From contig BCKL01000014.1 in the NCBI GenBank assembly GCA_001600635.1, forward strand, positions 138,202-202,201: 64,000 nucleotides of DNA. The letters run 5' to 3'. Shown here in pieces: positions 1 to 46,778 of the stretch; the first letter of the stretch is position 1, and the number at the start of each line of letters is the position of its first letter. A program made the position numbers and the translations under genes. Below the pieces are notes generated by a model. That model was not told where the DNA came from. It saw only the letters and a program-made list of their open reading frames with translations, and ran no database searches. The DNA comes from Leucosporidium creatinivorum (taxonomy: Eukaryota > Basidiomycota > Microbotryomycetes > Leucosporidiales > Leucosporidiaceae).

Positions 1-494
1 ACCTGGTCCTTCTTGAGACGTTGCCGAACAGTCAGCTGTTTCGCCTGTCTGCTCTCACCTCTCTCCACTTCCTGGCGAGCTCGGATGCACTTCCACGATT
101 CCTGCAGCACAATCCTCTTCCCTTCCTTGCACATCTCGTCCTCCGCCCCAGCGCAGGGTGCTTTCAAGCGCTACTCTCGGATCTCGACGCCCCTTCACTC
201 CAAACTCTATCGTTCGACGAGCTGTTCTACAAGACTGGGCGTACGTTGGAAGCGGATGACATGTGGTCTTTCATTCGGCGTGACCAGGAACGCGCTGATC
301 AGCAATGGCCGGAGCTCAAGGTGCTGCTGCCCGAGGTGCAGCGCCGCCGTTGGCTGCTCGAGGCCGACGATCTGCTCGACCGAGACAGCAGCGAGCTCAT
401 CTTCATGAAGGAGGGAGAGCTAGAAGTGCAGGTGGAGTACGACATACCTTGGAACTCGGTGGAAGAGCTGTTGGAGCTCAGGCGGAGTTGGTGA
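1..494 (+). CDS. F-box/LRR-type protein A1, C-terminal part (5' end outside window)
   Basis: The frame is open from the left edge and ends at a stop at 492-494, giving the last 163 residues. Leucine-rich stretches such as LTSLHFLAS and APSLQTLSF suggest irregular leucine-rich repeats. The tail SVEELLELRRSW matches the tail of the protein at 12454-13686 (SVEELLELKRSW), and the upstream repeats align loosely with it, so the two are paralogs. Both run towards the inverted-repeat arms, one from each side, so this gene forms the outer left element of the mirror-image array. The F-box expected at the N-terminus lies outside the window. Such proteins usually pick substrates for SCF ubiquitin ligases; for this copy that is inference from the paralog. 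No ATG is needed here because the gene continues leftwards. Confidence 0.6.
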   Translation, partial: LVLLETLPNSQLFRLSALTSLHFLASSDALPRFLQHNPLPFLAHLVLRPSAGCFQALLSDLDAPSLQTLSFDELFYKTGRTLEADDMWSFIRRDQERADQQWPELKVLLPEVQRRRWLLEADDLLDRDSSELIFMKEGELEVQVEYDIPWNSVEELLELRRSW

Positions 495-874
495 GGGTAC
501 GCCGGGGTGAGTTCGTCTCGCTTGTTTCTGCACGAAGACGTCAAGCTGACGCGTGCTTTGCTCTGCAGTACGGTCTGAGAGCCCCTCTGTATGATTTGCA
601 ACGTGCTTGCGTCGCTTTCTCGTCTTGTCGAGCTTCGAGAGCTTGCGAGCTTGATCGCTGCTCGGCGCTCGCATATTACCGGCCTACTGCCTGGCATGAC
701 GGTGGAGAGCTGTAGTATTCGGCAAGCACAGTATCAGCAAGCTCGGGTTCCCAGCTCCTCAGCTCCTCCCATCTCCGCGACTTCCTATCCACCTTCGGCG
801 AAAGCGCGCTCGGGCTCCTCGGCGCAGCTACATCCACTGGTGAGGGGAGCAGCACAGACAAGAGTTATCGCTGC
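495..874. other. 3' flank between A1 and B1
   Basis: No gene is supported. Just after the A1 stop there is an intron-like block (gtgagt at about 506, ctgacg, then ctctgcag at about 569), probably a 3' UTR intron. From about 585 the sequence matches, inverted, the end of the right arm at about 12355, so the outer limit of the inverted repeat lies here. Confidence 0.5.
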
Positions 875-2146
875 TCAGCGCAGAACGCAGATTGAACGAC
901 TCACCCGTGCAGCCTCCTGGTCGCCGTTACAGTCGAGCTCAATCTCCCTCGCTTTGCAGAGCTTGCTCAGCTCGCTCAGGCCCGCCGCTACGGCGTCCGA
1001 GCTTCCATCCCAGTAGAATGAGATTCGTGTAAGTCTCGAAAGCGAGAAGTGGTTGGCTTTCAGCAACGCAGTCAGGTTTGCNAGGTTGCAGGGAGCTTTG
1101 TCCTCCGGTTCGATAAGGGTGAGGCAGTCAATCGGCTCTGGCAAGGCGGCCAAGATGAAGGAATNAAGCTGGTTGATGATAACGTGGTCAACGTTGTGAC
1201 ATCTTTTGATCAGGGGGACAAAGGGGAGGGCGAGGTCGACCGAGGGCGTAGAGAAGCGGATCGTGAGGAGGGGGAATGATAGTCGACTCGTGGTATCGCA
1301 GGACTGCAAGGCGGTCATTCGGTCGCGGGGAAAGGTAGGCGGATGGTTGGGCGGGAGCTCGACNACATCGAGACTTGCCGACAGCGTTGGCGTGGTTANG
1401 AGCGACAGGAGGAAGGGGGGAGGCGGCTTGCCTGGCTGGTGTAGGAAGGCGAAGCTTAAGATTGTGAGCGGATACGGTGTTGTCGAGGGTATGGGGCGGG
1501 AGGGAGCTTTGTAGGCAACGGTCCAACCGAGCTTGATTGACATCAGTTCTGTCAACGCGAGAGCGATCAGCGTTTCGGCGCGCAGCTCGGCGAGCGAGGG
1601 ATGAAGAGACAGCTTACTCGCGAGCTTGTAGAACACAATGGGATCCAGGTCGACGGCATCCCTGATTGAGATAGACTTGAGCTCGCTGCACAGCTGGATA
1701 CAGCGGGCGACGAGGCTGCCGCTAAGAGCGCGGAACGGACCCAAGGGTCGACTGATCAGGCTCGTCGCAAATCGAAGGTGCTCCGTTTGCGTTTCCGCCC
1801 TCTTGTTCGACAGGAAGGATCGNATCCCATCGTCTGACCGCAGCTGAGGACTGATCCAAAGCAACCTCTGGGCTTCCGCGCCCCACAGCGAGCAGACGAG
1901 CGACATCTTGCAGAGGAAAGCGCGCCGTTCGAAGTCTTGCTCGTCACTCGTTCGCGTGGAGACCTGTGCTCCTACTTGGATCATCTTGNGCTGNAGCTCG
2001 GGCGGTAGTCGAGGCGGTCCTGAGTCAAGCTGGAGCTGGGCGAGCTCAGCGTCGAGCTGAGCTTGTCGCTCCTTCTTGAGCTTCCTCCTCGCTGCTCCCG
2101 AGCGTTTGCCGTGCGCTGTAGGCTGTTGAGGCGGCTGAGCTTCCAT
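875..2146 (-). CDS. F-box-like protein, B subtype (copy B1)
   Basis: Exons 2146-1618 and 1548-875 encode 400 residues. The start at 2146 (MEAQPPQQ) is shared with B2 and B3. A basic block, TAHGKRSGAARRKLKKE, is followed by an F-box-like segment (PRLPPE, then RRAFLCKMSLVCSLW and EAQRLLW), and then by poorly conserved leucine-rich sequence typical of fungal F-box proteins. The intron (gtaagc to gacag, branch ctgat) has the same position and phase in all B and C paralogs. The unspliced frame happens to be open through the intron here but not in B2. Three N bases lie in the F-box region (1823, 1989, 1994), making a few residues uncertain. The last codons may be altered by a further intron (gtgagt near 890). 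It is divergent with C1. Substrate unknown; ubiquitin-ligase adaptor role is inferred. Confidence 0.7.
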   Translation of the reverse strand: MEAQPPQQPTAHGKRSGAARRKLKKERQAQLDAELAQLQLDSGPPRLPPEXQXKMIQVGAQVSTRTSDEQDFERRAFLCKMSLVCSLWGAEAQRLLWISPQLRSDDGXRSFLSNKRAETQTEHLRFATSLISRPLGPFRALSGSLVARCIQLCSELKSISIRDAVDLDPIVFYKLASKLSLHPSLAELRAETLIALALTELMSIKLGWTVAYKAPSRPIPSTTPYPLTILSFAFLHQPGKPPPPFLLSLXTTPTLSASLDXVELPPNHPPTFPRDRMTALQSCDTTSRLSFPLLTIRFSTPSVDLALPFVPLIKRCHNVDHVIINQLXSFILAALPEPIDCLTLIEPEDKAPCNXANLTALLKANHFSLSRLTRISFYWDGSSDAVAAGLSELSKLCKAREIELDCNGDQEAARVSRSICVLR

Positions 2147-2915
2147 CTGCGCGAGTGTCGAAGTCGAAGCGAGCGAAGAGACGAAGCGAGCAAGCGAGCA
2201 AAGATGAGGAAAGAAGGAGAGAGGTGAGACGGCGATTCTGCTCTCTCCCTTCAACCTCTCGCTTTCGATTTCTGCTCTCGACTCGACTCAGACAGGACTG
2301 GAAGCTGTATAGGAAGCTACAGGACTACACCTCGACAGCTCCGCCCCTCCCCTTCCCCTCTCGTTTCGACCGCTCTCGGATCGCTCGCTCGACGTGGAAG
2401 CTCGCTCAGCTGCTCTGCGAGTTGACCGCTTCGCTTGAGGTGAGTCGTGCGCTTCTGTTCTGTAGCTGTGAGAGCGCTGTAGGGACTTGNTGTAGTTCAG
2501 CCCCGGCNAGCAGGGTGGCAGAGGCGAGCGAGCTCGAAGCGGACGATGGAGGGGGCTCGTGCACTGTTGACATGGCGAGTCTTGGGTCGGCTGTAGATTG
2601 CTCGGAGCAGTTGTAGAGCACAGGACAGCTCTGAGAGATTGCAGAACTGACCTCGAGTCTCTCCCCTGCTCGCAGATCGCCCGGCGCTCCCCTTGTCGGA
2701 CTTGCTCGCTCGCTGCTGCTCTCGCGTGACCGATACTCCCAGATGGTGAGTAGTAGATTTAGCTTTGAGCTTTTCCAGTATCTTCACACTGCCTCAGAGC
2801 TAACGTGTCACCACCTCTACAGCACCCCCTCCTTCGCTCCCTCCCTCGGCGCTCACCTCTCCTCCTCGGCATCACCCTCCTCGCCCTTCGCCTCGCCTCT
2901 TCGCTAGCCTCCGCC
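2147..2915. promoter_or_regulatory. Unit-1 bidirectional spacer between B1 and C1
   Basis: This 769-base spacer separates the B1 and C1 start codons. Its B-side half is inside the inverted repeat and matches unit 2; its whole core (about 2400-2830) also closely matches unit 3 (about 45060-45485). A leader intron for C1 runs from 2746 (gtgagtag) to 2822 (ctctacag) and is present at the same place in units 2 and 3. It presumably carries promoters for both genes; no specific factor site is claimed. Confidence 0.65.
2406..2573 (-). other. Conserved 55-codon ORF in unit-1 spacer
   Basis: An ATG ORF (MSTVHEPPPSSASSS...) lies upstream of B1 on the same strand. It recurs in unit 2 (10372-10539, 55 codons) and unit 3 (45085-45228, 47 codons). 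It could be an upstream ORF in the B leader, or merely open because the DNA is so conserved. Two N bases (2490, 2508) fall inside it. Confidence 0.3.
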
Positions 2916-4146
2916 ATGGCCGACAAAGCTCCTCCTTCGTCTGAACCACCCACCGCCCACGGAAAGCGATCCGGCGCCGCTAGGAGGAAGCTGAAGAAGG
3001 AGAAGCAGGCTCGCCTCGATGCCCAGATTGACCCGAATAAGGAGCCTCGCCTACCACCTGAGCTTCAAATGCGCGTGTTGCAAGTCACGGCCGAAATTCC
3101 CGATGCCCTGGGACCACTCAACCCTGGTACTCGCGCCCGCCGAGCTTTCCTCCGCCGAGCCTCGCTTGTCTGCTCCGTCTGGAGGATTGAGGCCCAGAGA
3201 CTGCTGTGGGAGACGCCTCACTTCTATTCCAAAGATGGCATGAGCAGGTTCCTAGCGGTGGAGGAGCAGCGAGGGTCAATACACTGCCTAAAAATCGCTA
3301 CGACCGACCAGGAGATGTGGGAGGGTGCAGCGCTGGACGGGGCGCTTGCAGAACGGATCATTAGAACAAGCGAGAGCTTGACACGGCTGTCGGTGGGAGG
3401 ACTATCCACCTAGATGCGCAATGTCTCTACCTTTCGGGCCTCAGGAGTACGTTTGAAATCTGATTGGCTCTCGGTCAAATGGCGCCTCGCCGAGTCGACT
3501 CGCTGACACTCTCGGCTCTGCAGATCTCGTGGATCTACAAATAGGAAGAGGAGTGGTTTTAGAGGGATGTGATCAGCCCCTTCCACCTCGCCTTCCATTC
3601 ACTCTCGTCATGCTTCAGCTCGCCGTGCTCTACCCGCACAGTCTCGTCAAGGCCAATCAAATTATGGTCGCGCTTCTCGAGGCTGTCAGCTTCACTGCAG
3701 TCCTCCACATCTATGACGCCACCGACTTGACGCCGAAACAAGACCGTATCCGACCGGTGAGCTTGAACCCGAGCAGGCCCCTCGGCGTTTTGGCTCTCGG
3801 CGTCCGCTTCGACACGCCCTGCGTCGACCTCGCGCCGCCCCTTTATCCCGTGCTTCAAAATTGCGATTCACTTCAGATGTTCCTCACCAACGAAGCGCAC
3901 AGCGGAATGTTCGCCGCGCTGCACTCCCCCATCGAGCATTTGGTCCTCACGAACGAATCGCCGACGCACGACTTCGCTGACGAAGTGGCGCTGCTCCGCG
4001 CGGGTCATGAGTCGCTATCCGAGCTGGAGTGTGTCGAAGTCGTGCATGTGTCGTCGAGGCTGCATCTCGAGGAGCTCGAGCGCGAGTGCCGAGCGAGAGG
4101 AATTGAGCTGATTTGGAAGGGCGTCAAAACGACGGCCGCCTGGTGA
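2916..4146 (+). CDS. F-box-like protein, C subtype (copy C1), with an apparent frameshift
   Basis: Exons 2916-3446 and 3524-4146. The start MADKAPP at 2916 is shared with C2 and C3. The basic block TAHGKRSGAARRKLKKE is followed by an F-box (PRLPPELQMRVLQ, RRAFLRRASLVCSVW, EAQRLLW). The intron (gtacgt to ctgcag, with cgctgac) matches the family position. Before it, near 3395-3405, the frame reaches a stop, while another frame continues with HLDAQCLYLSGLR, which aligns with DLDPSILYDSGLK of C3. The gene therefore carries a one-base loss or two-base gain, or a sequence error. After the intron the frame is intact to the stop at 4146 and keeps the family C-terminal pattern (PTHDFADEVALLRAGHESLSELE). 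If the shift is real, the protein stops after 166 residues, just past the F-box. Confidence 0.6.
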
Positions 4147-4596
4147 GTGAGCTCTCCCGCTCCATAAATCTAGACCCGCTGATGAGCCCCCTCGCCGTCT
4201 CGCAGAACGTCACCAGCTGGAACTTCGCCGTGGCAACCTCGGTCGAGATTGACTGACGGTCTGGCGCAGGTTCGGCGCTACAAGGCGAGACGGAGGTCGA
4301 TACTATGTACCGTTTGATGGCGACGAGGGCCCCTGTAACGCAAGCGGCTACCCACAGACCTCGGCATTTGGGCCTGCGCGGGCGAGCCCGGCGCAGAAAC
4401 AAACTCGGCGAAGCTCCTCGCGACTCTACTTTCAGTCGGGTGAAGCCGAAGAAGAACCCCTGATATAACACACAAGCGCTCTCGCGCATCGCTAAACGTA
4501 CACTATCGCATCCCTCGTCCTCTCTTCCACCTCCCAACCCCACTCCTTCGCCCTCGCCCGTCCACCAAGTCCCTCACTCCCACGCCCACCCATCGC
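4147..4596. other. Convergent 3' flank of C1 and PNO1
   Basis: No gene supported. An intron-like block directly follows the C1 end (gtgagtgagc at 4143 to ctcgcag at about 4206), so the C1 transcript probably continues here. Confidence 0.4.
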
Positions 4597-5935
4597 TCAG
4601 AACCGCTCCCTACTCCTACTAGCGACCTTCCTCAAATTGGCGTAAATCTTGCCGGGAGGGGAGCCGAGGACGAGGGCCGAGATGGAGTCGCGGGCGATTT
4701 TGATGTTGGAGAAGGTGCCGAGGATGTGGATCTTGCTGTTTGTTTTGATTGCCGGTCCGAGAGGTGGTGAGAATGGGGATGGAGGGAGCACGAGATGGAC
4801 GAGAGAGAGGGAGGGAGGGTTAGCGAGCGGTTGGGGCGATGGAGGGACGAGAAGGGGAGGTAGAGAAGAGGCGGGGAGAAGGAGTACAGAAGAAGGAAGA
4901 AACTCACGTATCGGCCAACACGATCCTCGTCCTACTAGCATTCTCAATCACAAACCTCGTCTTTCCCTCATGACCGGCAATACGACCAATCGCGCGACTC
5001 AAGTGATCGCCATGGAGGGTCTTGATATCCTTGATCTCGAACGACTCGATGTAGAGCTCCTCGAGGCGGAGGAGGGCGATCGCGTCGTCCACTGCGAATC
5101 CGAGGGCGTAGGCGGAGAGGAAGTCGGCGGCGCGGGTGAGGGAGGAGGGGGAGGGGGTGTGCTTTGAGGTCTGTGGTGTGGGAGAGGGAGAGAGGGGTGG
5201 GTGAGGTGGAGGTGGAGAAGGAGCGAAGAGGAGAGAGAGATGAAAGGGAAGAAGGTGGTCAGCCCTCGGCGCCGAGAATCCAGAAAGCTCGTAAAGAGCT
5301 CAGTTGAAGCCACTCTGACCCACCTTCATCTCGACCCAACGTTTATGCATGTTCATCCTAACCTGCAATCCACACTCCTCGACCAACGGGCTGTAGATCT
5401 TGATCCAATCCCGCTTCAAGGGGGTCATCCTATGCGGGGGGATGCCGACCTTCCTCCTCTGGGTGAGCCCACCGGTGGAGACGTGGGAGACGGCGGGGAA
5501 GGAGAGCGAGTTGGAGCCTTGGATTTGCGAGATGGGGGTGCGGGTGACGGGAGTGGGGAGCGAGAGGGAGGAAGGGTCAATCATGATGGAGTCGTCCTCG
5601 TCGTCCTCGTCGTCGTCCTGATCGTCGTCTTGGTCCATGGCCATGGCTGCTGTAGCTTGTTCGTTGGTGACCTTGCTGCTAGCCCCTCCCGAGCGAGCGG
5701 CAGCTTTCTGTTCCTCTGAGCGCGAGTCCATCGGCAAGCGTTCAAATTCCATCATGTCGGAATCTTCTGCGATGGAACTGGCGGAAGGCGTGGGTTGGGT
5801 CGAGAGGAAAGTCGAAGGTTTGCCCTTCTTTTGTCCCTTGCCCGAGGTTGTTGTAGGAGGGTGCGAGTTTGCCTTCTTCAAAGCGAGTTTGCGAGCCTTT
5901 GCTGAGCTGGTCGACGCGGGCTGGAAGTCGTCCAT
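4597..5935 (-). CDS. PNO1: PNO1/DIM2, KH-domain 40S ribosome assembly factor
   Basis: Exons 5935-5324, 5170-4908 and 4735-4597 encode 337 residues. The conserved body matches the Pno1/Dim2 family strongly: [17 protein letters not shown], then [57 protein letters not shown] and the tail [13 protein letters not shown]. The last parts are the KH domain that binds the 3' end region of pre-18S rRNA. Pno1 works with the nuclease Nob1 in late nuclear and cytoplasmic 40S maturation. The N-terminal ~140 residues are low in complexity, with an acidic run around residues 100-115, as is common for fungal orthologs. The start (MDDFQ) was chosen as the first ATG giving a family-like length; a longer open frame upstream lacks similarity. 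It is divergent from YPT7 with a 375-base gap. Confidence 0.95.
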
Positions 5936-6310
5936 GGTGGGTAAGGGTAGAATGTAGGTCGATAGAAGAGGGAGTGCTGAGCTGAGAGCTGTAGGACGGT
6001 AGAGCTGAGATGAGGCGAGTAGCAGGCTAAAAGGTGAGGAAGAGGACGCAAACCTGAGTTTCTTGCGGCCAAGCAAGTCCCTTTTCGAAGCTGACACGGC
6101 TAAGTCCAAAATGAGCTGAGCGGGTGACCACCTCTTAGTACTCTCTCCTTCCCGCCTCACTCGTCTCTTTCTCTCAGCTCGGCACTCGTTTCTGTACCTC
6201 AATCAGACTAGTAGCCCAACACACCCCGCCTGCTGCACCTCATCAGCCCTCTTCACTCTCTTCGACCCAACCCCCCACCGTCTCCCGTCTCGTCTCTCTC
6301 AGTCGCTATC
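5936..6310. promoter_or_regulatory. Divergent promoter region PNO1/YPT7
   Basis: This 375-base interval separates two divergent start codons and is rich in pyrimidine runs (ctcgtctctctc) just before the YPT7 ATG. No specific site is claimed. Confidence 0.4.
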
Positions 6311-7988
<1,678 letters not shown>

Positions 7989-8785
7989 ATCGCAGTCTCC
8001 TCCCTCGCTCTCTTCTGTTACGTTCCCCTCCCTCTCCCGCCGCCCGCCGCGCCTTCTTCGTTCCCCCTTCGTCTCGTCTCATACAGCCCTCTACTCTACT
8101 GTGCCCATCCACTCACCTACACACCTACCTACCTACTAGTTTTATTACACGCCCTCCGCCCTCGCGCCTACCTTCGCTTCTCTTCTCTTTTAGTTCTGAG
8201 TTTCCACTTTCGCCGTTCTGTAACACTGCGCTCGAGTTTTGACATTATCTGGGCGCGAAGGAGGCGAGAGGGATAGAGAGAGCGAGAGAATGTGAGAAGA
8301 GGGAGGGAGAACCGAGGCGCGCCGCAGGTGCTGGGTCTGATCGTTCGCTGCCGGGAGGTCGTTCGGTCGGCGAGAGGAAGCTTTTGGGTCATGTTCTCTC
8401 CTGACTGGCTAGGTGTAGATAGGAAAGGAATGTATGAGGTAGCTCGACGGCTGCTCGTCTCCGTCGCGATCGAAGCGAGCCGCAGAGCGAGCGAACAGGT
8501 CGAGCAGCGTCGCGCTCCCGGCGCCGCCGAGGCGAAGAGAACCTAAACTTCGCCCATCTCTCTCGGCCTCGGGTGTCGCAAGTAAAGTCGAGCACGGTTT
8601 CCAAGCTGGTCCCTATTCCTCGCGCAAGCCTCTTTCCCCCCTGGCCGCTCACACAACGCGCCACTGCCGAGCCGAACATCCCGATGCGACTGTCCCTCAG
8701 CCTCCGCGCTTCCAGTGACTATAGAAAGAGGCCGAGACGTCAGTTTCAAATGTCGAATCCTTCTTGAGTTCGTGCAAAGCTCAAC
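7989..8785. other. Convergent flank between YPT7 and C2
   Basis: Nearly 800 bases with no supported gene. It begins with pyrimidine-rich YPT7 3' UTR. An intron-like block on the minus strand near 8720-8785 (gtgagtt, ctgacg, tatag) adjoins the C2 stop and may be a 3' UTR intron of C2, as in C1 and the B genes. Confidence 0.4.
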
Positions 8786-10031
8786 TCACTTCTCAATGCC
8801 CTCCCAACGCAGCTCAATCCCTCTCGTTCGGCAGTCTTGCGCCAGCTTCGCAACCTTCGTCGAGCAAAGCAAGCTTGATGCGCTGATGGTGAGCCCCTCG
8901 AGCTTGGAGAGCGAATGGTGACCCGCTTGAAGTAAGGCTACCATTCGTGCGAAGTCGCGGGCCGGAGGATTCCCCTCGGGGTCGAGGTAAAGGTAGAGGT
9001 GCTGAATGGGGGAAGGCAGGGCGGAGAAGATGTCGTCGTGCAGCACCGTCAAGACGAGAATCTTGAGCATCTTGCACTGCTGAAGGATGGGGAGTAAAGG
9101 ACGCCAAAGGTTGGGAGAGGAGAGGTCGAAGCGAAGGTCCAGTCGGCGGCAGCGCACCGGTCGGGTGAGAGTGAGGCGAGGGTGCGGCATAGCTCGTACG
9201 TCTTGGACGACATCGTCGGTATCCTCAAACGCCAAGATGGCGGTTCCTGCCACGGCCTCCAAAAGCGAGGCGACCAGCTGATCCGGCGTAACTTCGTTCG
9301 CCCCGAACGGGTACAGAAGATCGAGGTGAAGGTAGGAGAGGGTGAAAGGGTGTTTGCGATAGAGGTGAAGGGATTCGCTCGTGAAGCATACCCCGGTGTT
9401 GAGGCATAGGTAGGAGAGATCTGAGACGAGCAGATTAGCAGGCTGTTGAAACCCCCCGCCCACGAGCCGAGCAGCCGAGCGGGCACTCACAGGCGAGCCC
9501 AGGTCGATGGAGACTAGCGAGGTCCAGGTCTGCTACCAGAGCGAGATACAGTGTCTCCACTCCTTGACGGCGTTCTATGACCCGCTCCACCAGAGCGCCG
9601 CTCAGAAAGGTGATCGTCGCATTACCCTCGGCGGGTCCGATCTTGAGGCATCGTGTTCGACCTCTTATGTCCTCTACCGCAAGGAAACTCATCATGGCAT
9701 CGTCGTTTCGGAGTTGCGGCGTCTTCCAGAGTAGCATTTGCGCCTCTGTCCTCCAAACCGAGCAGACGAGGGCGGCTCGACGAAGAAAAGCTCGGCGGGC
9801 TTGGGTTTCCAGGTTGGTGAAGAAGGACTGCTCTCCGTCCTCAGCGCCGAGCTGGATAATCTTCAACTGTAGCTCGGGCGGTAGGCGAGGCGGTCCCGAG
9901 TCGAGCTGGAGCTGGGCGAATTGAGCGTCGAGCTGCGCCTGCTTTTCCTTCTTGAGCTTCCTTCGAGCGGCGCCGGATCGCTTTCCGTGGGCGGTAGGTG
10001 GCTGAGGTGAAGGAGGAGTGTTGTCGGCCAT
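8786..10031 (-). CDS. F-box-like protein, C subtype (copy C2)
   Basis: Exons 10031-9491 and 9420-8786 encode 391 residues, apparently intact. It starts MADNTPPSPQ, then carries the family block TAHGKRSGAARRKLKKE, an F-box (PRLPPELQLKIIQL, RRAFLRRAALVCSVW, EAQMLLW) and a leucine-rich C-terminal half ending ARGIEL-type (CRTRGIELRWEGIEK). The intron at 9490-9421 (gtgagt to ctcag) is at the family position. It is the mirror-image counterpart of C1 but has clearly diverged from it, unlike the B1/B2 pair. It is head-to-head with B2 across a 767-base spacer. Intactness makes it the best reference for the C subtype in this window. Likely SCF substrate adaptor by domain; partner unknown. Confidence 0.72.
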
Positions 10032-10798
10032 GTGGGAGGTGAGCGCAGAGGCGAGTCAAGGAGCGAGGTGGGTGATGTGGAGGAGGAGGGGGGAAGGCCG
10101 AAGGAGGGGGAGCGGGATGGGCAGCTGTAAAGGCGGCAGTATGTTAGCTCTGAGTAGTAAGCAGAGACTGAAAAGCCAAGAGCTGAATCTAGTACTCACC
10201 AGCTGGGCGGAGCAGTCACGCGAAAGCTGCAGCGAGCAAGCAAGTCCAGCGAGGGGAGCGCCGAGCGGTCTGCGAGCCGGGGAGAGAGTTGATGTTAGTT
10301 CTGCAATCTCTCAGAGCTGTTCTGTGCTCTACAACTGCTCCGAGCAATCTACAGCCGACCCAAGACTCGCCATGTCAACAGTGCACGAGCCCCCTCCATC
10401 GTCCGCTTCGAGCTCGCTCGCCTCTGCCACCCTGCTGGCCGGGGCTGAACTACACCAAGTCCCTACAGCGCTCTCACAGCTACAGAACAGAAGCGCACGA
10501 CTCACCTCAAGCGAAGCGGTCAACTCGCAGAGCAGCTGAGCGAGCTTCCACGTCGAGCGAGCGATCCGAGAGCGGTCGAAACGAGAGGGGAAGGGGAGGG
10601 GCGGAGCTGTCGAGGTGTAGTCCTGTAGCTTCCTATACAGCTTCCAGTCCTGTCTGAGTCGAGTCGAGAGCAGAAATCGAAAGCGAGAGGTTGAAGGGAG
10701 AGAGCAGAATCGCCGTCTCACCTCTCTCCTTCTTTCCTCATCTTTGCTCGCTTGCTCGCTTCGTCTCTTCGCTCGCTTCGACTTCGACACTCGCGCAG
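10032..10798. promoter_or_regulatory. Unit-2 bidirectional spacer between C2 and B2
   Basis: This 767-base spacer is the inverted counterpart of 2147-2915. Its B-side half (about 10305-10798) is nearly identical to unit 1; its C-side half has diverged but keeps the leader intron (minus strand, 10199-10125, gtgagtac to tttacag) at the matching place. The switch from near-identity to divergence is abrupt near 10300. Confidence 0.65.
10372..10539 (+). other. Conserved 55-codon ORF in unit-2 spacer
   Basis: Counterpart of the small ORF at 2406-2573, on the same strand as B2 and upstream of it. It encodes MSTVHEPPPSSASSS and ends in SEAVNSQSS. Function unknown; it may be leader sequence only. Confidence 0.3.
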
Positions 10799-12073
10799 AT
10801 GGAAGCTCAGCCGCCTCAACAGCCTACAGCGCACGGCAAACGCTCGGGAGCAGCGAGGAGGAAGCTCAAGAAGGAGCGACAAGCTCAGCTCGACGCTGAG
10901 CTCGCCCAGCTCCAGCTTGACTCAGGACCGCCTCGACTACCGCCCGAGCTNCAGCNCAAGATGATCCAAGTAGGAGCACAGGTCTCCACGCGAACGAGTG
11001 ACGAGCAAGACTTCGAACGGCGCGCTTTCCTCTGCAAGATGTCGCTCGTCTGCTCGCTGTGGGGCGCGGAAGCCCAGAGGTTGCTTTGGATCAGTCCTCA
11101 GCTGCGGTCAGACGATGGGATNCGATCCTTCCTGTCGAACAAGAGGGCGGAAACGCAAACGGAGCACCTTCGATTTGCGACGAGCCTGATCAGTCGACCC
11201 TTGGGTCCGTTCCGCGCTCTTAGCGGCAGCCTCGTCGCCCGCTGTATCCAGCTGTGCAGCGAGCTCAAGTCTATCTCAATCAGGGATGCCGTCGACCTGG
11301 ATCCCATTGTGTTCTACCAGCCCAAGCTCGCGAGTAAGTTGTCTCTTCATCCCTAGCTCGCCGAGCCGCGCGCCGAAACGCTGATCGCTCTCGCGTTGAC
11401 AGAACTGATGTCAATCAAGCTCGGTTGGACCGTTGCCTACAAAGCTCCCTCCCGCCCCATACCCTCGACAACACCGTATCCGCTCACAATCTTAAGCTTC
11501 GCCTTCCTACACCAGCCAGGCAAGCCGCCTCCCCCCTTCCTCCTGTCGCTCNTAACCACGCCAACGCTGTCGGCAAGTCTCGATGTNGTCGAGCTCCCGC
11601 CCAACCATCCGCCTACCTTTCCCCGCGACCGAATGACCGCCTTGCAGTCCTGCGATACCACGAGTCGACTATCATTCCCCCTCCTCACGATCCGCTTCTC
11701 TACGCCCTCGGTCGACCTCGCCCTCCCCTTTGTCCCCCTGATCAAAAGATGTCACAACGTTGACCACGTTATCATCAACCAGCTTNATTCCTTCATCTTG
11801 GCCGCCTTGCCAGAGCCGATTGACTGCCTCACCCTTATCGAACCGGAGGACAAAGCTCCCTGCAACCTNGCAAACCTGACTGCGTTGCTGAAAGCCAACC
11901 ACTTCTCGCTTTCGAGACTTACACGAATCTCATTCTACTGGGATGGAAGCTCGGACGCCGTAGCGGCGGGCCTGAGCGAGCTGAGCAAGCTCTGCAAAGC
12001 GAGGGAGATTGAGCTCGACTGTAACGGCGACCAGGAGGCTGCACGGGTGAGTCCTTCCATCTGCTTTCGGTGA
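10799..12073 (+). CDS. F-box-like protein, B subtype (copy B2)
   Basis: Exons 10799-11333 and 11403-12073 encode 401 residues. It is almost identical to B1 and starts MEAQPPQQ with the same basic block and F-box. Compared with B1 it has two extra codons just before the intron (tyrosine then QP) and a different base in the intron that closes the unspliced frame, which supports real splicing in both copies. Several residues are uncertain because of N bases. The coding end is followed by a likely intron (gtgagt near 12049 to ctcaccag near 12112); splicing it would give a slightly different last few residues. It is head-to-head with C2 and convergent with A2. Function as an SCF adaptor is inferred from the F-box only. 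Confidence 0.7.
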
Positions 12074-12453
12074 GTAGCGCTGACTCTTGCCTGTGCCCGC
12101 TCCCCTCACCAGTGGATGTAGCTGCGCCGAGGAGCCCGAGCGCGCTTTCGCCGAAGGTCGATAGGAGGTCCCGGAGATGGGAGGAGCTGAGGAGCTGGGA
12201 ACCCGAGCTTGCTGATACTGTGCTTGCCGAATACTACAGCTCTCCACCGTCATGCCAGGCAGTAGGCCGGTCATATGCGAGCGCCGAGCAGTGAACAAGC
12301 TTGCAAGCTCTCGAAGCTCGACGAGACGAGCAAGCGGCGCAAGCACGTTACAGATCAGGGAGCGACTCTCCCGGCTAGATTGTAGAGTAGCGAATCCCTC
12401 AGCTCGATCCCCGGCGCGGTAACGGAGTGAAACGAACTCACCTCAGCCGACCC
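12074..12453. other. 3' flank between B2 and A2
   Basis: No gene supported. It holds the outer part of the right arm and a likely 3' UTR intron of B2. The junction with the A2 end near 12430-12470 (gaactcacctcagccgaccctcaccaactccgc-like order) resembles the A1 end at 480-520, showing that the mirror symmetry extends into the A genes. Confidence 0.45.
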
Positions 12454-13686
12454 TCACCAACTCCGCTTCAGCTCCAGCAGCTCCTCCACCGACCTCCAAT
12501 GCGGGCTGTTCCCCGGCAGATGCTTATGCAGCTCTGGTTCCGACATCCTCTGGAACTCTGGAAATTGAAGCGAGTCGAGCCGCTCGAGCCAATCGTCCGC
12601 GTCGCCCTCCCCTTGCCAACCATACCACTGCCACATTGGCAGCAGCACCCTTCGAGAGACCGGCCGGGGAGGCTTCCATGGTGACCGCGTCTCGCCGTGG
12701 CAAAGAAAGTCATGTAGACCCCACGGCGTAAGCTCTCCGTGCTCGTCGTCGTGACTCTGGTCGATGGAGACGATTCGGAGAGGGAGCGGATCGAAAACGG
12801 CTTCCTCTTCGTCGCTGACGGCGCGCAGGCATTCGTCGGAGGCAGGAACGTTGAGGTGCGTAAGAGAGGGAAGCTCTTTGTGGTGGAGGAGGAATGCGCG
12901 GAAGGGCTCGGGGCTGGTCCAGAGGTCGAGCGAAGTGAGGAGTGGGAGTGGGAGGCGAAAGGGCTCGAGCGGCTCGGGCTCAACTTGACGAAGAGCCAGA
13001 TGAGCGAGGGTGGGTGCGGAGAGGTCGAAATAAGGTCCAAGGGGGAAGGTCCAGCAGTGGTCCAGCTTGAGAGACTGGAGGGCGAAAGTCGCCGGAGGGG
13101 GAGGGGGACCGTCGTTGCTCGGCCCTAACTCGGATTCGAGGAATCCGTTGAACTCGGTAACGGAGAGATGGCGTAGGGTCGAGAATGGCGCGAGGGACTT
13201 TGCGAGTGTAGGGAAGTGTCGTCCAGGGTCCAGCTCACCCCCAAGCTCGGATGCGTCGAGGAGGAGGGTGCGAAGATGGGACAGGTCCTTGCCGAGGAAG
13301 GGGGCCAACGATTCGGGGGAGGGCAGCGGAAGGCCGTCCTTGTAGCTCCTAAGATACTTGTCATCATCTCTCTTGTAGGCTGCGTCGAGCTGAACGAGGT
13401 TCGGCGTGTGGAAGAGGAGGGCGCCAAGGTCGAACGGCGAGATCGCAACTACGCGAAGCGAGGTAAGCTGGGTGGCGAAAGGTGGGGCGGAGAGCCTCTT
13501 GAGCAAGGTGGGATTGAGCTCGTCGAGCTGAATAGACGTCCGCATGAGGAGCTGGGCGAAGGGGGTCCAGTTTCGATGGACGAGCGCGAGAGATGCCCGA
13601 AGTGCCGGACGACGTGTGAGGTTGTCCAGAGTGGAAGTAGCAGCGATGATCTGCTGTGCGATCTCGAGGGGTAGCGGCGGCACCAT
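12454..13686 (-). CDS. F-box/LRR-type protein A2
   Basis: A single exon of 410 residues starting at 13686. The N-terminus PLPLEIAQQIIAAT with RASLALVHRNW about 25 residues later is a typical short fungal F-box. The rest is a leucine-rich array with irregular spacing (LTSLRVVAIS, LVQLDAAY, LSHLRTLLLDASE, LRHLSVTEF, LQSLKLDHC, LAHLALRQ, LTSLDLW, LTHLNVPA). It lacks the basic block of the B and C proteins and has no intron, so it is a separate subfamily. Its tail SVEELLELKRSW links it to A1. Such proteins usually select targets for SCF ubiquitin ligases through the repeats; no target can be named from sequence. Confidence 0.7.
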   Translation of the reverse strand: MVPPLPLEIAQQIIAATSTLDNLTRRPALRASLALVHRNWTPFAQLLMRTSIQLDELNPTLLKRLSAPPFATQLTSLRVVAISPFDLGALLFHTPNLVQLDAAYKRDDDKYLRSYKDGLPLPSPESLAPFLGKDLSHLRTLLLDASELGGELDPGRHFPTLAKSLAPFSTLRHLSVTEFNGFLESELGPSNDGPPPPPATFALQSLKLDHCWTFPLGPYFDLSAPTLAHLALRQVEPEPLEPFRLPLPLLTSLDLWTSPEPFRAFLLHHKELPSLTHLNVPASDECLRAVSDEEEAVFDPLPLRIVSIDQSHDDEHGELTPWGLHDFLCHGETRSPWKPPRPVSRRVLLPMWQWYGWQGEGDADDWLERLDSLQFPEFQRMSEPELHKHLPGNSPHWRSVEELLELKRSW

Positions 13687-14240
13687 CCTGTAGCGAGAGA
13701 TGAGAGGCGTCAGCGGGGGTCGAGGGTTCGAGGCGCTGTAAAGATCTCACCTTGAGCTTTGAGCGTGCTATGCAGCAGCAGCGAGTGATCTCTCTATGTG
13801 TTCCCAACTAGCAATGCTTCCTGTCCCGTCCTGTCCAGCAGCGAAAGCGCCGTCCGAGCTCGTTCGAGCGCTGAGCTGCCGTCAGAGTCGAGCTGTCTGC
13901 ACCGCTGTAGTCCAGTAGCGTAGTCGAAGACGTTTCAAAGAGTTCCAAGCGAGCGATTTGTAGAGTGATGAGCAGATGAAGATGTAGTAGAAGAGAGAAA
14001 GCTGGAAAAGGAGTAGCAGCTCGACTTTCGCTTCCGACCACCTTCGACCAGCGAGCGACGGCTCGACTCGGCTCTTTCGCTGCCAGCAAGCATAGGCGAC
14101 AAAGGAGGTATATCAAGTTGTACAAGATGAATGCCGAGTCAAGTCCATCCAGGCTGCTGCTCTCTCCCATCGCGACCACACCGTGACGTCTAGCGCTCCT
14201 CGTCTCGCTCTCCCTACACACTCCACAGTGGACGAGCACC
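13687..14240. other. Region upstream of A2 and downstream of CDC50
   Basis: No gene supported. A 143-codon minus-strand frame (13808-14239) exists but shows no family likeness and overlaps the CDC50 3' end region; it probably lies in A2 leader and CDC50 trailer sequence. Confidence 0.4.
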
Positions 14241-16232
14241 TCAGTGAGCCCCTGCCTTGTTCCAACTGAGGAACTGGGGATCTCCCTGTGTGCGTCGAGA
14301 AGGAGGATCAGCGTCTATTCGAGCTCGAGATGAAGCACCGAGCGCCGAAGAGCAAAGACTCACCAGCTTCCTGGGCTTGATGAGATGCCTCAAAGTCAAG
14401 ATGAGACCGAGGAGGATGCAGACTCCTCCGACGGCGATGTAGGCGATACCGAGGAAGGGGTTGCGACCTCCGATGAAGGAGACGGTCGAGAAAACGAGCG
14501 ACTTGGTTCCGCCGTAAGGCTGGACGGGGTAGTCTGTAGCAAAGAGAGACAGGAAGAGTCAGCGCCAGTAACTACAGCGACGTAGATGCAGGCGACTCAC
14601 TCATGTAGATCTCAACCTCGTACTCTCCCGCTGCCATGGTCTCGTCGTCGTTGCGGAAGTACAGCTTCCTGAACGTCGGCAGTCCCGCCGTCCTCATCCA
14701 CACCTGGAAGTGCTCGTCCACGCTGAGGTCAGGGATGGGGTTGGCCTCGGTGTAGCCGTCTGGGTAGCGATCGTGCCAGTTGGGAGGAGGGACGGCCTGA
14801 TCGTTCGTGTACTTGGACTTGGTGTACTTCTTGGCCTCGCCGGGCCATGCGATGCCCTTGGAGGTCATGTTGTAGGTGACGTTGCCCGAGGAGCCGGACG
14901 GGTTGACGAGGACGGGAGGGAGGAAGGTGTCTGCGAAGCGTAGGCCGAGTCAGTGCGCGGGCTCGGAGAGCGAGCAGGCTAGTAGGAGCTCACCGTTGAA
15001 GACCGAGTTGGCGATGAGACCGCAAGGGAAGACGGGCATGTCTCCGATGACAGCTAGCGGCTTGCACTCGCCGCCCGAGATGTCGGAGGCAGACTTGGCG
15101 GCGCCCTTGAGCTGGTCTGAATCGATCGATTTGACGTAGCGACGGTGGTTCTGGTAATAGTTGGTGACTATGGGTGAGGCGCGAGAGCAGGATGAGGGCG
15201 GTTCGGCGGGTTAGCTCGACGAAGCGAGAAGGAAGCGAAGGGGACAGCTCACGCTTATAGTACATAAAGACGGGGGCCTTCATATCCGACGGTAGTTGGA
15301 ACTGTAGTCGGCAGACATTGGCGATCGAAGCGTTCGTCTCGGCGGCATCGTGAGTGAACTGCCAAGTCGGAGGAGTGATGGGCGAAGACGAGTCGACGTG
15401 ATAGTTGTAGGCGGAGGACGGGAGAGGGTCGAAGGAAGTGTTGGGTGCAACGAACTCGCACTGAGTGTAGTCGATGGTGAACTCCTTGACCTGTGCGCCG
15501 AGCCAGAGAGTCAGCGCGCCGGTTCAAGAAATGGACGCCGAGCACGCGACTGCTGAGCGCGGCTTGCGAGGCCTGCGGCTGATCATGCATCCTTCTGTAG
15601 CAGCTGCCTCAATCTGCTGGCTACCAGCGTTCGGCCTGCTTCCTAGCAGCGCGCTAGAACCCAGTTGCGGCCTGCGCGCTCGCTCTTCCCAAGCACCTCG
15701 TCGCAAGTCCCGGCGGCCTGTGAAGGGAGCTCACCTGATTACTACCCCACAATAGAACTCCACCGAGAGGGACAAAGATGAGGCCGACGAGGAAGAAGGT
15801 GGGCAGAACGGTCGCAGGGGTGAGGATGGGCTGCCACGCCTTCAATCGCTGCTGCTTGAAAGCCGTGTCTGTAGAGGAACGTAGTTTGATCAGCCAGCGC
15901 CCTCTGTAGCTCGATGTACACCCTGGTAGCGCCACCATCGCCGAAGAGTGTGCGTTCGTCGCGCGCTCCCACCGCTCCCTCGGCCTCGCATCTCCCTCGC
16001 CAGAGCTGCTGCTGGGCTGCAGAGTCTGCAGAGCTGCACTGAAGGGGACAATGACACTTACTAGCTGGCCGGCGGGACCATTTGACCTTCTCCTTGGTCT
16101 CATTAGCTTTCAGCACGTCGGCGTCCTCCTGTTTAGACGATTTGCGGTTGAACAGACCCACTGCAGAAGGCGGGAACGACCGAGGTGAGCTATGGAAGTG
16201 CACGAGAGTAAGCTTGAGCAGCCGAACGCACT
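14241..16232 (-). CDS. CDC50: CDC50/LEM3-family flippase subunit
   Basis: Exons 16232, 16160-16062, 15868-15735, 15490-15253, 15167-14994, 14930-14601, 14533-14364 and 14285-14241 encode 396 residues. The start codon appears split: A at 16232, TG after a gtgcgt-to-ctgcag intron, then [10 protein letters not shown]. Family signatures are clear: [20 protein letters not shown] before the first membrane helix ([17 protein letters not shown]), [62 protein letters not shown], and a second helix ([18 protein letters not shown]) ahead of [10 protein letters not shown]. These proteins pair with P4-ATPases, are needed for their exit from the ER, and take part in phospholipid flipping. Which of Cdc50, Lem3 or Crf1 it corresponds to cannot be decided. 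The split start is inferred from frame fit. Confidence 0.93.
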
Positions 16233-43590: not shown

Positions 43591-44804
43591 CTAAGCCCTA
43601 TGGCAACTCGGCGTGCTGCTCCCATGAAGCCCTATCCTCCTCGCTTGGCACTCGGCTTTGAGGTCTTCGAGGTGGATCCACGTATCCGGTTTATTCGCAA
43701 TCATGATGGCGTGGACCTTGGTCAACGAGCGATGAGCGGCTCGTAGTAGGCGGATCTCTTCGGCGAAGTCACGGTCGGGCGACTCGCTGGTGAGGACGAG
43801 ATGGTCGATGGGCGAGGCGAGGGCAGCAAACATTGCGGGATGCAGCTGATTGATGGAGAGTGTCTCGAGTGACTTGCAGCTCACGAATAAGGGCAGGAGA
43901 GGGCGAAGAAGGTCGAGCGAGGAGGTGCCAAAGTCGACGTTGAGGTGTGTGAAGCGCAATGCGCCGGTGAAGCTGAGCTCAGGAAGCTGTACACCCAGGG
44001 TCGGGTACTGGTTTCTCGAATCATCGATAACGAGGACGACAGATCCTGAGGTAGCTTCCAATAGCGACGCGACGAAGCGATTCGGCATCATGCCTTCTCC
44101 GAGCGGGTAGAGCAGGTCGAGATGCAGGTGCTTGAGGGTGAAGGCGAGTCTCTTTGGGATTCCTCGAGCTGTTGCTTTGATCCTGATCTCTCCTAGCAGT
44201 GACAGTCGCGACAGGTCTGCGAAAGGGACGCCGTCAGCGATGGGGAAGCGTCGCCGAGTTGAGACCAAACGCGCTTACCGGCAAGGCTAGGATCGCAGAA
44301 GATCCAGGGATCGATGTGCTCGGCATAGGCGATGTGAATGGCCTGCACCGTTTGGCACTGATGGAGGATCAGCGCAGCCAAAGAGCCATCAAGGGGAGTC
44401 CACGTTTCGGCGGGCATCTCGCCGAGCGCAAGTCTGTACGTGGAGCCGCTCTTATTGGCAGTAGCGAGGAAGCTCTTGATAGAGTCGTTAGTCTTTAGGT
44501 GAGGGGTCGTCCAGAGTAGGCTTTGAGCTTCCAGCCTCCAGAGCGAGCAAACGAGGGAGGCCTGACGGAGGAAGGTACGGCGCTCGAGAGTCTCGGGACC
44601 TGTGTACATCATGGGGTGGGGGCCCTCCTCTGCTCCCGCCTGTATGATCTTGAGTTGGAGCTCGGGCGGCAAGCGAGGGGGTGGGAGTTGGAGCTGGGCG
44701 CACTGAGCGTCGAGCTGAGCTTGTCGGTCCTTCTTGAGCTTCCTCCTCGCTGCTCCCGAGCGTTTGCCGTGTGCTGTAGGCTGTTGAGGTAGCTGAGCTT
44801 CCAT
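43591..44804 (-). CDS. F-box-like protein, B subtype (copy B3)
   Basis: Exons 44804-44279 and 44216-43591 encode 383 residues, apparently intact. It starts MEAQLPQQ and keeps the basic block with one change (KLKKD), then the F-box (PRLPPELQLKIIQ, RRTFLRQASLVCSLW, EAQSLLW) and the family C-terminal half (SPIDHLVLTSESPDRDFAEE, LLRAAHRSLTKV). The intron (gtaagc to ctgcag, with gctgat-like branch ctgac nearby) is at the family site. It has clearly diverged from B1/B2, giving the time depth that the B1/B2 pair lacks. It lies head-to-head with C3 across a 764-base spacer. Near the end the frame passes a possible 3' intron and the last ~15 residues differ from other members. Confidence 0.7.
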
Positions 44805-45568
44805 CCGTACGAGGGTCGAAGTCGAAGCGAGCGAAGAGACGAAGCGAGCGAGCGAGCAAAGATGAGGAAGGAGGGAGAGAGGCGAGACGGCGATTCTGCT
44901 CTCTCCCTTCCACCTCTCGCTTTCTACTTTTGCTCTCGACTCGGACAGGACCGGAAGCTGGCTAGGAAGCTACAGGACTACACCTCGACAGCTCTACAAC
45001 TCGCCTCGCCTGCTCTTGCTTCAACCGCTCTCGGATCGCTCGCTCGACGTGGAAGCTCGCTCAGCTGCTCTACAAGTTGCTCGCTTAGCTTGAGGTAAGT
45101 TGTGCGCTTCTCTTCTGTAGCTGTGAGAGCGCTGTAGGGACTTGCTGGAGTTCAGCCCCGGCTAGCAGGGTGGCAGAGGCGAGCGAGCTCGAAGCGGACG
45201 ATGGAGGCGGCTCGTGCACTGTTGACATGGCGAGTCTTGGGTCGGCTGTAGGTCGCTCGGAGCAGTTGTAGAGCACAGAACAGCTCTGAGAGATTGCAGA
45301 AACGACCTCGAGTCTCTCCCCTGCTCGCAGATCGCCCGGCGCTGCCCTCGTCGGATTTGCTCGTTCGCTGCTGCTTTCGCGTGACCGATTAGCTAGCTAG
45401 TGAGTAGTAGATCCAGCTCTAAGCTTTTCCAGTATGTCCATAATACCTGAGAGCTAACGTGTTACTACCTCTACAGCACCCCCTCCTTCGCTCGCTCCCT
45501 CGGCGCTCACCTCTCCCCCTTCGCATCACTCACCCCCTACACTCCTCGCCTCCTCCCTCGTCTCCGAT
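44805..45568. promoter_or_regulatory. Unit-3 bidirectional spacer between B3 and C3
   Basis: At 764 bases it is nearly the same length as the other two spacers. The stretch 45060-45485 matches unit 1 (about 2400-2830) with only scattered changes, more closely than the flanking genes match. The C-side leader intron is retained (45400 gtgagtag to 45476 ctctacag), although the unit-1 ATG just before it is absent here. Confidence 0.65.
45085..45228 (-). other. Conserved small ORF in unit-3 spacer
   Basis: A 47-codon ATG ORF (MSTVHEPPPSSASSS... ending RSAQLTSS) corresponding to those at 2406-2573 and 10372-10539, but stopping eight codons earlier. It lies upstream of B3 on the same strand. Confidence 0.3.
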
Positions 45569-46778
45569 ATGGCCGACAAAGCCAACCCCGTATCTCAACC
45601 ACCTACCGCCCACGGGAAGCGATCCGGCGCCGCCAGAAGGAAGCTCAAGAAGGAGAAGCAGGCTCAGCTCCACATGCAACTCGCCCAGCTCCAGCTCGAC
45701 CTCGGGCCGCCTCGTCTACCACCCGAGCTTCAGCTACGCGTGATACAGGTGGAAGGCGAGCTGGTAGAAGAGCCAGGCATGTTCAACGACCCATCGCGCG
45801 ATCGCCGAGCTTTCCTGCGAAAGGCCTCCCTCATCTGTTCGCTCTGGAGGATCGAGGCGCAAAGGTTGCTGTGGGATGCGCCTCAGCTACGCTCCGATGC
45901 CGCGGTGAAGAGCTTCGTCAAGAGCTTTCCTCTCGCCAATCGCCCGTGGACGCGCTGCCTTGACCTCCTCGCTCCCCGAGACGAGACGCTGGCCGACACT
46001 GCGCTCGTCGCACAAGTCATCAAGAGCTGTTCGGGGCTACACAAGCTTGCGCTGTCCAACATCTGCGATCTGGACCCCTCGATCCTATACGACTCGGGCC
46101 TTAAGGGTAGGTGGGGAGCTCGCGGTCTCGACGACCCATGAAGTGCTGACTAGTTGCGCTCGCTCGCTCGACAGATCTCACAGAGCTCAACTTGGCGTAC
46201 GACGTGGGGTTCGCGCGCGCAACCGTTTCCCCGTTCGACTACCTTTCACCCTCTCCTTCCTCCGCCTCAACTTCCTATATCAACTCGGCGCCCTGATGCC
46301 GCCCGAGCTCGTAATCGCTCTTCTCGAAAGCGTCAAGGAGTACGCCTACGTGGATGTAGGGCTCCTTGCAGATACGCCAACTCCTCGTCCGCCACGGAGA
46401 TGCATACTGGCGACCTCGAGTAGGCCGCTCCAGCTTCAAGCTTTGTCCCTCGGGTTCACCTCAACTTCCGTCGACCTTGCGCTATCGATACTTCCCGTGG
46501 TTCGCCAGTGCACGCAGCTGGTTGGATTAACCATCAACGAACCCCACGACGAGGTCTTTACCGCCTTGCCCTCCTCCCTCCGCCGCCTCACTATCCGCGC
46601 CAATGCCCCGACCCACGACTTCATCAGGGAGGTCAGGCTACTTCGCAAGGGGCATGCCTGTCTAGCCGACCTGAAGGAGCTCGTTTTCTTCCGCTGGCCG
46701 GAGGCACATGTCAACCTGTGGAAGTTGGAGTTGGAGTGCCGAAGTAGAGGGATCCAGCTTTCCAGCGACTTGTACTAG
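45569..46778 (+). CDS. F-box-like protein, C subtype (copy C3), with an apparent frameshift
   Basis: Exons 45569-46106 and 46175-46778. It starts MADKANPVSQ, with the full basic block, then F-box (PRLPPELQLRVIQ, RRAFLRKASLICSLW, EAQRLLW). The intron (gtaggt to gacag, with gctgac) is at the family position. After it the frame reads DLTELNLAYDVGFAR and then runs to a stop, while another frame supplies PVRLPFTLSFLRLNFLYQLG and the rest of the conserved half up to the stop at 46778. The switch lies within about 46205-46235, and the two exons together are not a whole number of codons. As in C1 this is a one-base-type shift or a sequence error, but at a different place. If real, the product ends shortly after the F-box. 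Confidence 0.6.

What the first reader, a model, noticed from the sequence alone, without database searches (positions are those of the whole stretch)
1..13686. Mirror-image F-box gene array enclosing PNO1 and YPT7
The order A1> <B1 C1> [<PNO1 YPT7>] <C2 B2> <A2 is symmetric in gene type and direction over nearly 14 kb. B1/B2 are almost identical, whereas C1/C2 and A1/A2 are diverged paralogs. The simplest reading is an old inverted duplication (or paired insertion) around two housekeeping genes, with later gene conversion refreshing only the B arms. I know of no described fungal F-box cluster of this form.
Basis: partly seen in the sequence, partly recalled or inferred. Interest (0 to 1): 0.85.

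Follow-up and report, generated by a model that had tools for sequence, protein, structure and literature searches.

The report
Mirrored pairs of F-box-like genes
Two housekeeping genes of a fungus sit between two mirror-image copies of a head-to-head gene pair that recurs along the same chromosome piece; DNA copying between the two copies has probably kept part of them alike, and the pairs share an unusually well preserved start region.

Summary
The mirror-image array is real. The arms form one collinear inverted homology (window -1008..4122 against 14024..8798) around PNO1 and YPT7. Identity falls sharply from about 100% (898-2623) to 74-83% just inside and, past a 92-97% shoulder (592-850), to 56-73% outside, near the predicted places. 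Two corrections. (1) All 16 Ns of the window lie in the B arms, 14 of them as seven mirrored pairs, so the B arms are probably partly a short-read consensus: near-identical, not proven identical. (2) The array is not one of a kind. B and C are halves of a head-to-head pair found on this contig with both gene starts eight times, plus one half. ATG-to-ATG distance is 761-771 bp in all eight and the start regions are 79-92% identical, while silent sites of the genes are nearly saturated. C1 and C2 are not clear sisters; trees suggest tail exchange between B and C genes. A1/A2 are the only A copies found, favouring an old inverted duplication of A-B-C with later conversion. A second near-identical inverted pair lies on contig C40. 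Closest architectures: Babesia ves and silkmoth chorion pairs.

The parts
1..494 (+). A1, 3' part only; the gene starts outside the window at about C14:137529 and has an in-frame TAG about 150 bp left of the window edge
   Evidence: 50% identical to A2, one TAG inside; open end of frame
875..2146 (-). B1 (B-type F-box-like/LRR-like gene), predicted intron 1549-1617
   Evidence: 400 aa after removal of the 69-nt intron
592..2623 (.). left homogenised tract (95% at 592-850, ~100% at 898-2623), holds 9 of the 16 Ns
2147..2915 (.). 769-bp intergenic region between the ATGs of B1 and C1, conserved in eight units
2916..4146 (+). C1 (C-type F-box-like/LRR-like gene), head 2916-3410, tail from about 3529; splice sites not worked out
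4597..5936 (-). PNO1 (KH-domain protein), approximate ends
   Evidence: PF22891 KH_PNO1_2nd 59.6 bits against cut-off 27
6311..7988 (+). YPT7/Rab7 GTPase, several exons, approximate ends
   Evidence: Ras family; best PDB sequence matches are Rab7 and YPT7
8786..10031 (-). C2 (C-type F-box-like/LRR-like gene), head and tail in separate frames; splice sites not worked out
   Evidence: F-box-like E 9.1e-5, 22.6 bits (cut-off 24.3)
10032..10798 (.). 767-bp intergenic region between the ATGs of C2 and B2
10322..12357 (.). right homogenised tract, holds 7 of the 16 Ns, all mirrored on the left
10799..12073 (+). B2, predicted intron 11334-11402
   Evidence: 401 aa
12454..13686 (-). A2, open 410-aa frame
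8798..14024 (.). whole right arm of the inverted homology (the left arm is -1008..4122)
43605..46777 (.). third head-to-head unit (U3) inside the window: B-type ATG at 44804 (-), C-type ATG at 45569 (+); ends approximate

Best explanation
The locus is an old inverted duplication of a segment A-B-C that now flanks PNO1 and YPT7. B and C are the two halves of a repeated, head-to-head pair of F-box-like/LRR-like genes that point away from one shared start region of about 765 bp. After the duplication the arms diverged. One or more rounds of gene conversion between the arms then homogenised about 2 kb over the B gene, its 3' flank and the B-side half of the start region (inferred from the sharp steps across non-coding DNA). 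The wider family on the contig evolves as mosaics: start region and gene heads stay position-specific and similar, while the LRR-like tails are strongly diverged and seem to have been exchanged between B- and C-type genes (tree conflict). Proposed function, inferred only: each head binds SKP1 in an SCF ubiquitin ligase and each tail selects a target, so the family is a set of co-expressed pairs of substrate receptors with variable recognition ends.
For: Continuous collinear inverted homology including A, its upstream region and the non-coding A-B junction. A found only twice in the genome. Identity steps across non-coding DNA on both sides. Longest >95% tract between U1 and U2 is 1757 columns (N counted as match); next longest of all unit pairs is 198 columns (U5/U7). 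Eight units with both gene starts, 761-771 bp between ATGs; start regions 79-92% identical; nine of ten genome matches of the start region on this contig, the tenth a short stretch on C12. Intergenic distance 0.20 on average against mean proportions of changed silent sites of 0.59-0.67. No codon rhythm in the intergenic alignment, and the longest homologous frame open in 8 of 8 units is 22 codons. Heads split into B and C types 98/95 without one damaged row; an all-C clade of tails rejected, p 0.001. F-box-like in 14 of 26 heads scanned.
Against: C1/C2 are not shown to be sisters, so the C part of the arms could have a separate origin or have been overwritten. No relative's genome was available to date the duplication or polarise it. 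The exact identity of the B arms is uncertain because of the Ns. F-box function is not shown: none of the five heads of the window reached the Pfam cut-off, no solved structure matched below E 0.9 by sequence, and both structure models were of low confidence. Most branches inside the family trees are weak, and the all-C test was chosen after the first trees had been seen.
Confidence: 0.7

Rival explanations
1. Two independent insertions or copies of the B-C unit landed in opposite orientation on either side of PNO1-YPT7; the mirror is accidental and the B parts were later converted.
For: B-C units recur on the contig and 6 of 8 neighbours are in opposite orientation; C1 and C2 are not clear sisters; the C-side half of the U1 start region is closer to U3 (0.880) than to U2 (0.847).
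Against: A1/A2 are the only two A genes found and sit in matching place and direction in both arms; the homology is continuous through A upstream, A, the A-B junction, B and C, whereas DNA alignments of U1 and U2 with other units end inside the B gene on one side and within about 120 bp past the end of C on the other (flanks held for several units are only 0.4-0.8 kb).
Confidence: 0.17
2. The second B arm is an assembly artefact: one B copy was used twice by a short-read assembler, or the arms are heavily collapsed.
For: All 16 Ns of 64 kb lie in the B arms, 14 of them as seven mirrored pairs; the only other Ns in about 172 kb read lie in a second near-identical inverted pair on C40.
Against: The flanks of the two arms differ clearly on both sides, and the arms carry private differences at 1584-1627 and in 592-897. 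A collapse needs two truly similar copies. The same N signature at an independent pair points to a repeat effect, not to invention of a copy.
Confidence: 0.07
3. The B arms are alike because the whole tract was recently re-duplicated or is under selection for identical protein, not because of gene conversion.
For: A recent copy replacing the old one would give the same steps; both B frames are open.
Against: The homogenised tract includes the 3' flank, an intron and half the start region, so selection on protein cannot explain it; a copy that replaces its counterpart within intact flanks is gene conversion in effect.
Confidence: 0.05

Closest known systems
ves1 multigene family of Babesia bovis (PMC7485966, passages read)
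   Same: Many divergent head-to-head pairs around bidirectional promoter regions; single genes besides; mosaics made by segmental gene conversion.
   Different: Surface antigens of a parasite, not F-box-like proteins; expression from one locus and switching are described there, nothing is known here. The paper calls the promoters quasi-palindromic; my test here was inconclusive.
Chorion gene pairs of silkmoth (PMC4639761, search listing only; details recalled)
   Same: Repeated, divergently transcribed pairs with a shared promoter in one locus; gene conversion is recalled for them.
   Different: Structural eggshell proteins in a developmental cluster.
Head-to-head NLR pairs of plants and, rarely, fungi (PMC12258605, passages read)
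   Same: Divergent pairs often sharing a promoter, strongly diverged recognition parts.
   Different: NLR domains; in Sordariales only 13 of 225 two-gene clusters are head-to-head according to that paper.
FLNA/EMD inverted repeats of the human X chromosome (PMC3961182, passages read; arm identity recalled)
   Same: Two genes enclosed by inverted repeats; predicts inversion of the enclosed segment by recombination between arms.
   Different: In the human case the inversion is listed as genotyped; here orientation polymorphism is only a prediction. Here the arms are a patch of high identity inside an older, diverged inverted repeat.
F-box genes in Basidiomycota (PMC4469406, passages read)
   Same: F-box domain proteins counted per genome.
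   Different: That paper lists 3 to 43 PF00646 proteins per species in its ten columns; the present family alone gives 62 matching stretches, fragments included, though the five window heads lie below the Pfam cut-off, so the numbers are not counted in the same way.

Membership tests
F-box proteins (Pfam F-box-like, PF12937) | head matches the F-box profile | tested here: inconclusive
   14 of 26 family heads match at E<=0.01, best 4.3e-9 (how many pass the cut-off is not shown there); the five heads of the window: 22.6, 20.1 and 18.2 bits against a cut-off of 24.3, two without match
F-box proteins (Pfam F-box-like, PF12937) | A genes match the F-box profile | tested here: not met
   A2: no F-box match up to E 1; A1 not scanned; only the look of the first 40 residues recalls one
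F-box proteins (Pfam F-box-like, PF12937) | binding to SKP1 in an SCF complex | not testable with these tools
   no protein data
Leucine-rich repeat proteins | tail matches an LRR profile or fold | tested here: inconclusive
   no Pfam LRR match in the C1 and C2 tails and none in the B1 frame; no tail was folded (only the C2 head and A2 were, both of low confidence); regular leucine spacing by eye only
Divergent gene pairs with a bidirectional promoter | two genes head to head, starts less than about 1 kb apart, conserved across copies | tested here: met
   ATG to ATG 761-771 bp in eight units, 79-92% identity
Divergent gene pairs with a bidirectional promoter | transcription of both genes from the shared region | not testable with these tools
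   no RNA data
Inverted repeats homogenised by gene conversion | tract of high identity with sharp ends inside diverged flanks, crossing non-coding DNA | tested here: met
   base-exact identity limited by Ns
Inverted repeats that flip the enclosed segment | both orientations of the enclosed segment exist | not testable with these tools
   one assembly only, no reads

The most novel reading that the evidence does not exclude
A fungal counterpart of the ves or chorion architecture: a chromosome-restricted set of head-to-head pairs of ubiquitin-ligase receptors in which one shared, strongly preserved bidirectional start region drives two genes, the heads stay fixed by position, and the variable target-binding tails are passed between the two positions and between units by gene conversion. 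It would be a recombination-driven generator of paired recognition proteins, for example for non-self recognition or for control of selfish DNA.
Probability: 0.25. Interest if true: 0.75.

Novelty: new variant of a known kind. Interest (0 to 1): 0.52.

Why it matters
Start regions that are far better preserved than the silent sites of the genes they drive, repeated eight times at nearly constant length, make a natural test of selection against gene conversion in a promoter. The mirrored B arms predict a measurable inversion of a segment with two housekeeping genes. If the tails are really exchanged between units, this is a fungal system for making new receptor specificities, of a kind that I know best from parasites and plants.

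Tried and rejected
Coding function of the intergenic region: rejected; changes show no codon rhythm (three gap-free blocks; three zones over the 27 pairs other than U1/U2), gaps are mostly 1 base long, and the longest homologous frame open in 8 of 8 units is 22 codons, although every unit has some open frames of 50 codons or more. A known RNA family in 1-15000: none at the gathering score. Quasi-palindromy of the start region: self-complement scores exceed the best of 20 block shuffles in 8 of 8 units, but the matches fold onto themselves at varying places, and I put them down to repeated GAG/CTC-like words seen by eye, so I do not claim it. Mating-type region: the only STE3 matches, two stretches, lie next to each other on C25, not C14. 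Folds: A2 pLDDT 45.5, C2 head 56.0, too poor for a fold search. PDB sequence matches of A2 and of the heads: none below E 0.9. B2 as a broken gene: first suspected, rejected because the stop lies inside a predicted 69-nt intron present in both copies. Species: a guess from memory was put to a paper search and led nowhere.

Rows and parts left out. One search used a file that held two loci, so its left coordinates are wrong; redone; pieces under 110 (head) or 140 (tail) residues, neighbour-gene pieces L023_2888, L031_2920, L028_3, L034_2918, L035_3068 (heads) and repeats L028_490, L029_2 (tails); L036 (identical to L035) was never put in; genes outside C14, U2B (same as U1B) and the damaged U7B; U8B exists only as a 54-residue piece and U9 has no C partner in the DNA read. 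U7C, U2B and U7B not compared; no B values for the 7 pairs with U8; 26 heads scanned; L019, L030, L031 and L036 of the 30 fetched were not (copy of L016 in the other arm, stop, stop, identical to L035); 32 of 62 matches were given no locus; a few of those on C14 and C40 (C14:350891, 351352, 352230, 352442 and C40:107725) were read later through L037 and L041.
Full report
Where it lies. The window is bases 138202-202201 of contig C14 (726,854 bases) in an unnamed 27.7-Mb genome of 63 contigs. It is a eukaryote with introns; a fungus is my reading from gene content, and no relative's genome was available for comparison, so the species and its group are not established.

The observation. The order A1+ B1- C1+ [PNO1- YPT7+] C2- B2+ A2- is in the sequence. 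PNO1 is supported by its KH domain (59.6 bits against a cut-off of 27) and YPT7 by Ras-family matches and by best PDB sequence matches to Rab7 and YPT7. The inverted homology is one continuous alignment of 5301 columns at 77.6%, window -1008..4122 against 14024..8798, so the left arm begins about 1 kb outside the window. In 100-column windows the region upstream of A is 79-85% alike, the first part of A 65-80%, the rest of A 33-70%, the B tract 91-100%, C upstream and head 57-86%, C tail 42-59%.

How alike the B arms are. Between 898 and 2623 the assembly shows 3 substitutions and one 6-bp indel, all at 1584-1627, and 9 N positions on the left of which 7 are N on the right as well. These 16 Ns are all the Ns in 64 kb. 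In the other DNA read from this genome (157,910 distinct bases including the window; about 14 kb more) the only other Ns are three at C40:108548, 119722 and 119832. They lie in a second near-identical inverted pair of F-box-like genes (C40:107457-109344 against 120921-119036, 92.4% overall, 98% in a 1100-base part). The sums of positions suggest that 108548 and 119832 are mirrored. I infer that N marks places where a short-read assembler met two copies that differ. The B arms are thus truly near-identical, but their exact identity is unknown; if every N is a real difference it is about 99%.

Both B genes look intact. A predicted 69-nt intron (1549-1617 in B1, 11334-11402 in B2) with GTAAG[C/T] and TGACAG ends gives frames of 400 and 401 residues, with X at N codons. 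A1 has an in-frame TAG, A2 is open over 410 residues.

The wider family. A search with the C2 head gives 62 matching stretches in the genome; the tool calls such counts lower bounds, and the list includes fragments. A2 finds only itself and A1. On C14 most matches form head-to-head pairs with one B-type gene (starting MEAQ or MEAR in 9 of 9) and one C-type gene (starting MAD in 4 of 8, otherwise MVD, MTE, MTD or MAN). I call them U1 (B1/C1), U2 (C2/B2), U3 (in the window at 43605-46777), U4, U5, U6, U7 and U8, and U9 with a B-type gene only. The distance between the two ATGs is 761-771 bp in all eight. The start regions are 79-92% identical. A genome search with the U1 start region finds ten places: eight full ones and one half on C14, and about 80 bases on C12. 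Some units are damaged: U7 genes are split, the U4 B tail is split, and U8 keeps only a piece of its B gene. The matches on C35 and C40 that were listed include several neighbours in the same direction, so the paired form seems special to C14.

Preserved start, diverged genes. Over 28 pairs of units the intergenic distance averages 0.20 (0.08-0.25). The proportion of changed silent sites averages 0.64 in C heads and 0.67 in C tails (28 pairs), and 0.59 in B heads and 0.63 in B tails (21 pairs, zeros for U1/U2 included). Protein identity averages 0.52 in heads and 0.31-0.34 in tails (7 C and 6 B genes). The intergenic region shows no codon rhythm and no long shared frame. So it is either under strong constraint or repeatedly homogenised; tracts above 95% shared by other units are short (up to 198 columns, U5/U7), so I lean to constraint with some conversion.

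Relationships. In the heads, B and C types form two clades (98/95) once the damaged U7C is left out; with it a C clade is not rejected (p 0.46). In the tails an all-C clade is rejected (p 0.001 with U7C, 0.0009 without): the B1 tail groups with the U4 C gene (99/98) and the C1 tail with the U9 B gene (91/90). The all-C test was chosen after the first trees had been seen, and these p-values assume otherwise. The simplest reading is exchange of tails between B and C genes; long branches or convergent change in the tails could mislead the trees. This weakens, but does not exclude, a single duplication. If the duplication is as old as the spread of the family, C1 and C2 need not be sisters, and tail exchange would break the link further. 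A1/A2 and the unbroken homology from A upstream to the C tail speak for one duplication. DNA alignments of U1 and U2 with other units stay within the B gene on one side and end within about 120 bp past C on the other, and A2 matched no other unit.

Function. F-box-like is supported at family level (14 of 26 heads at E<=0.01, best 4.3e-9) but none of the five window heads reaches the Pfam cut-off; the tails look leucine-rich but match no LRR profile in the pieces scanned. That the pairs act as co-expressed SCF receptors is inference. The prediction that PNO1-YPT7 can flip between two orientations by recombination of the B arms is inference from the arrangement and from the human FLNA/EMD case, for which PMC3961182 lists an inversion that includes these genes (passages read).

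Comparison with what is known. Passages of PMC7485966 describe about 33 divergent pairs of ves genes of Babesia bovis around bidirectional promoters and mosaics made by segmental gene conversion; this is the nearest architecture that I found. Silkmoth chorion pairs (PMC4639761, listing; details recalled) are a second. Passages of PMC12258605 say head-to-head NLR pairs are rare in Sordariales. Passages of PMC4469406 list 3 to 43 PF00646 proteins per species in ten columns. Ten paper searches were made. By title and start of abstract, the papers listed in the six that bear on F-box families or duplicated gene arrays include no fungal F-box cluster of this form; the lists were cut at 10-15 papers, and the library lacks most subscription papers, so this is no proof of absence from print.

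Verdict. The mirror is real and mostly explained: an old inverted duplication of A plus one member of a repeated gene pair, with conversion (and some assembly collapse) at B. The more interesting thing is the family of pairs with its preserved start region.

Noticed in passing
window 43605-46777: A third head-to-head B/C unit of the same family inside the window, not mentioned in the finding.
   Followed up: yes
G000 C40:107457-109344 and 119036-120921 (L041, L032): Second near-identical inverted pair of F-box-like genes, about 9.7 kb apart, with Ns in both arms and other frames between (one looks like a mitochondrial carrier, by eye).
   Followed up: partly
L035 (C35:227025-230528) and L036 (C40:4056-7559): 3504 of 3504 bases identical: the end region of contig C35 and the start of C40 overlap or are duplicated, so the assembly may hold redundant sequence.
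   Followed up: partly
about 150 bp left of the window (C14:138051-138053): In-frame TAG in A1, whereas A2 is open; A1 may be a pseudogene.
   Followed up: partly
U7, C14:349800-354300 (L037): Both genes of this unit are split by frame breaks while its start region is about as well preserved as the others.
   Followed up: no
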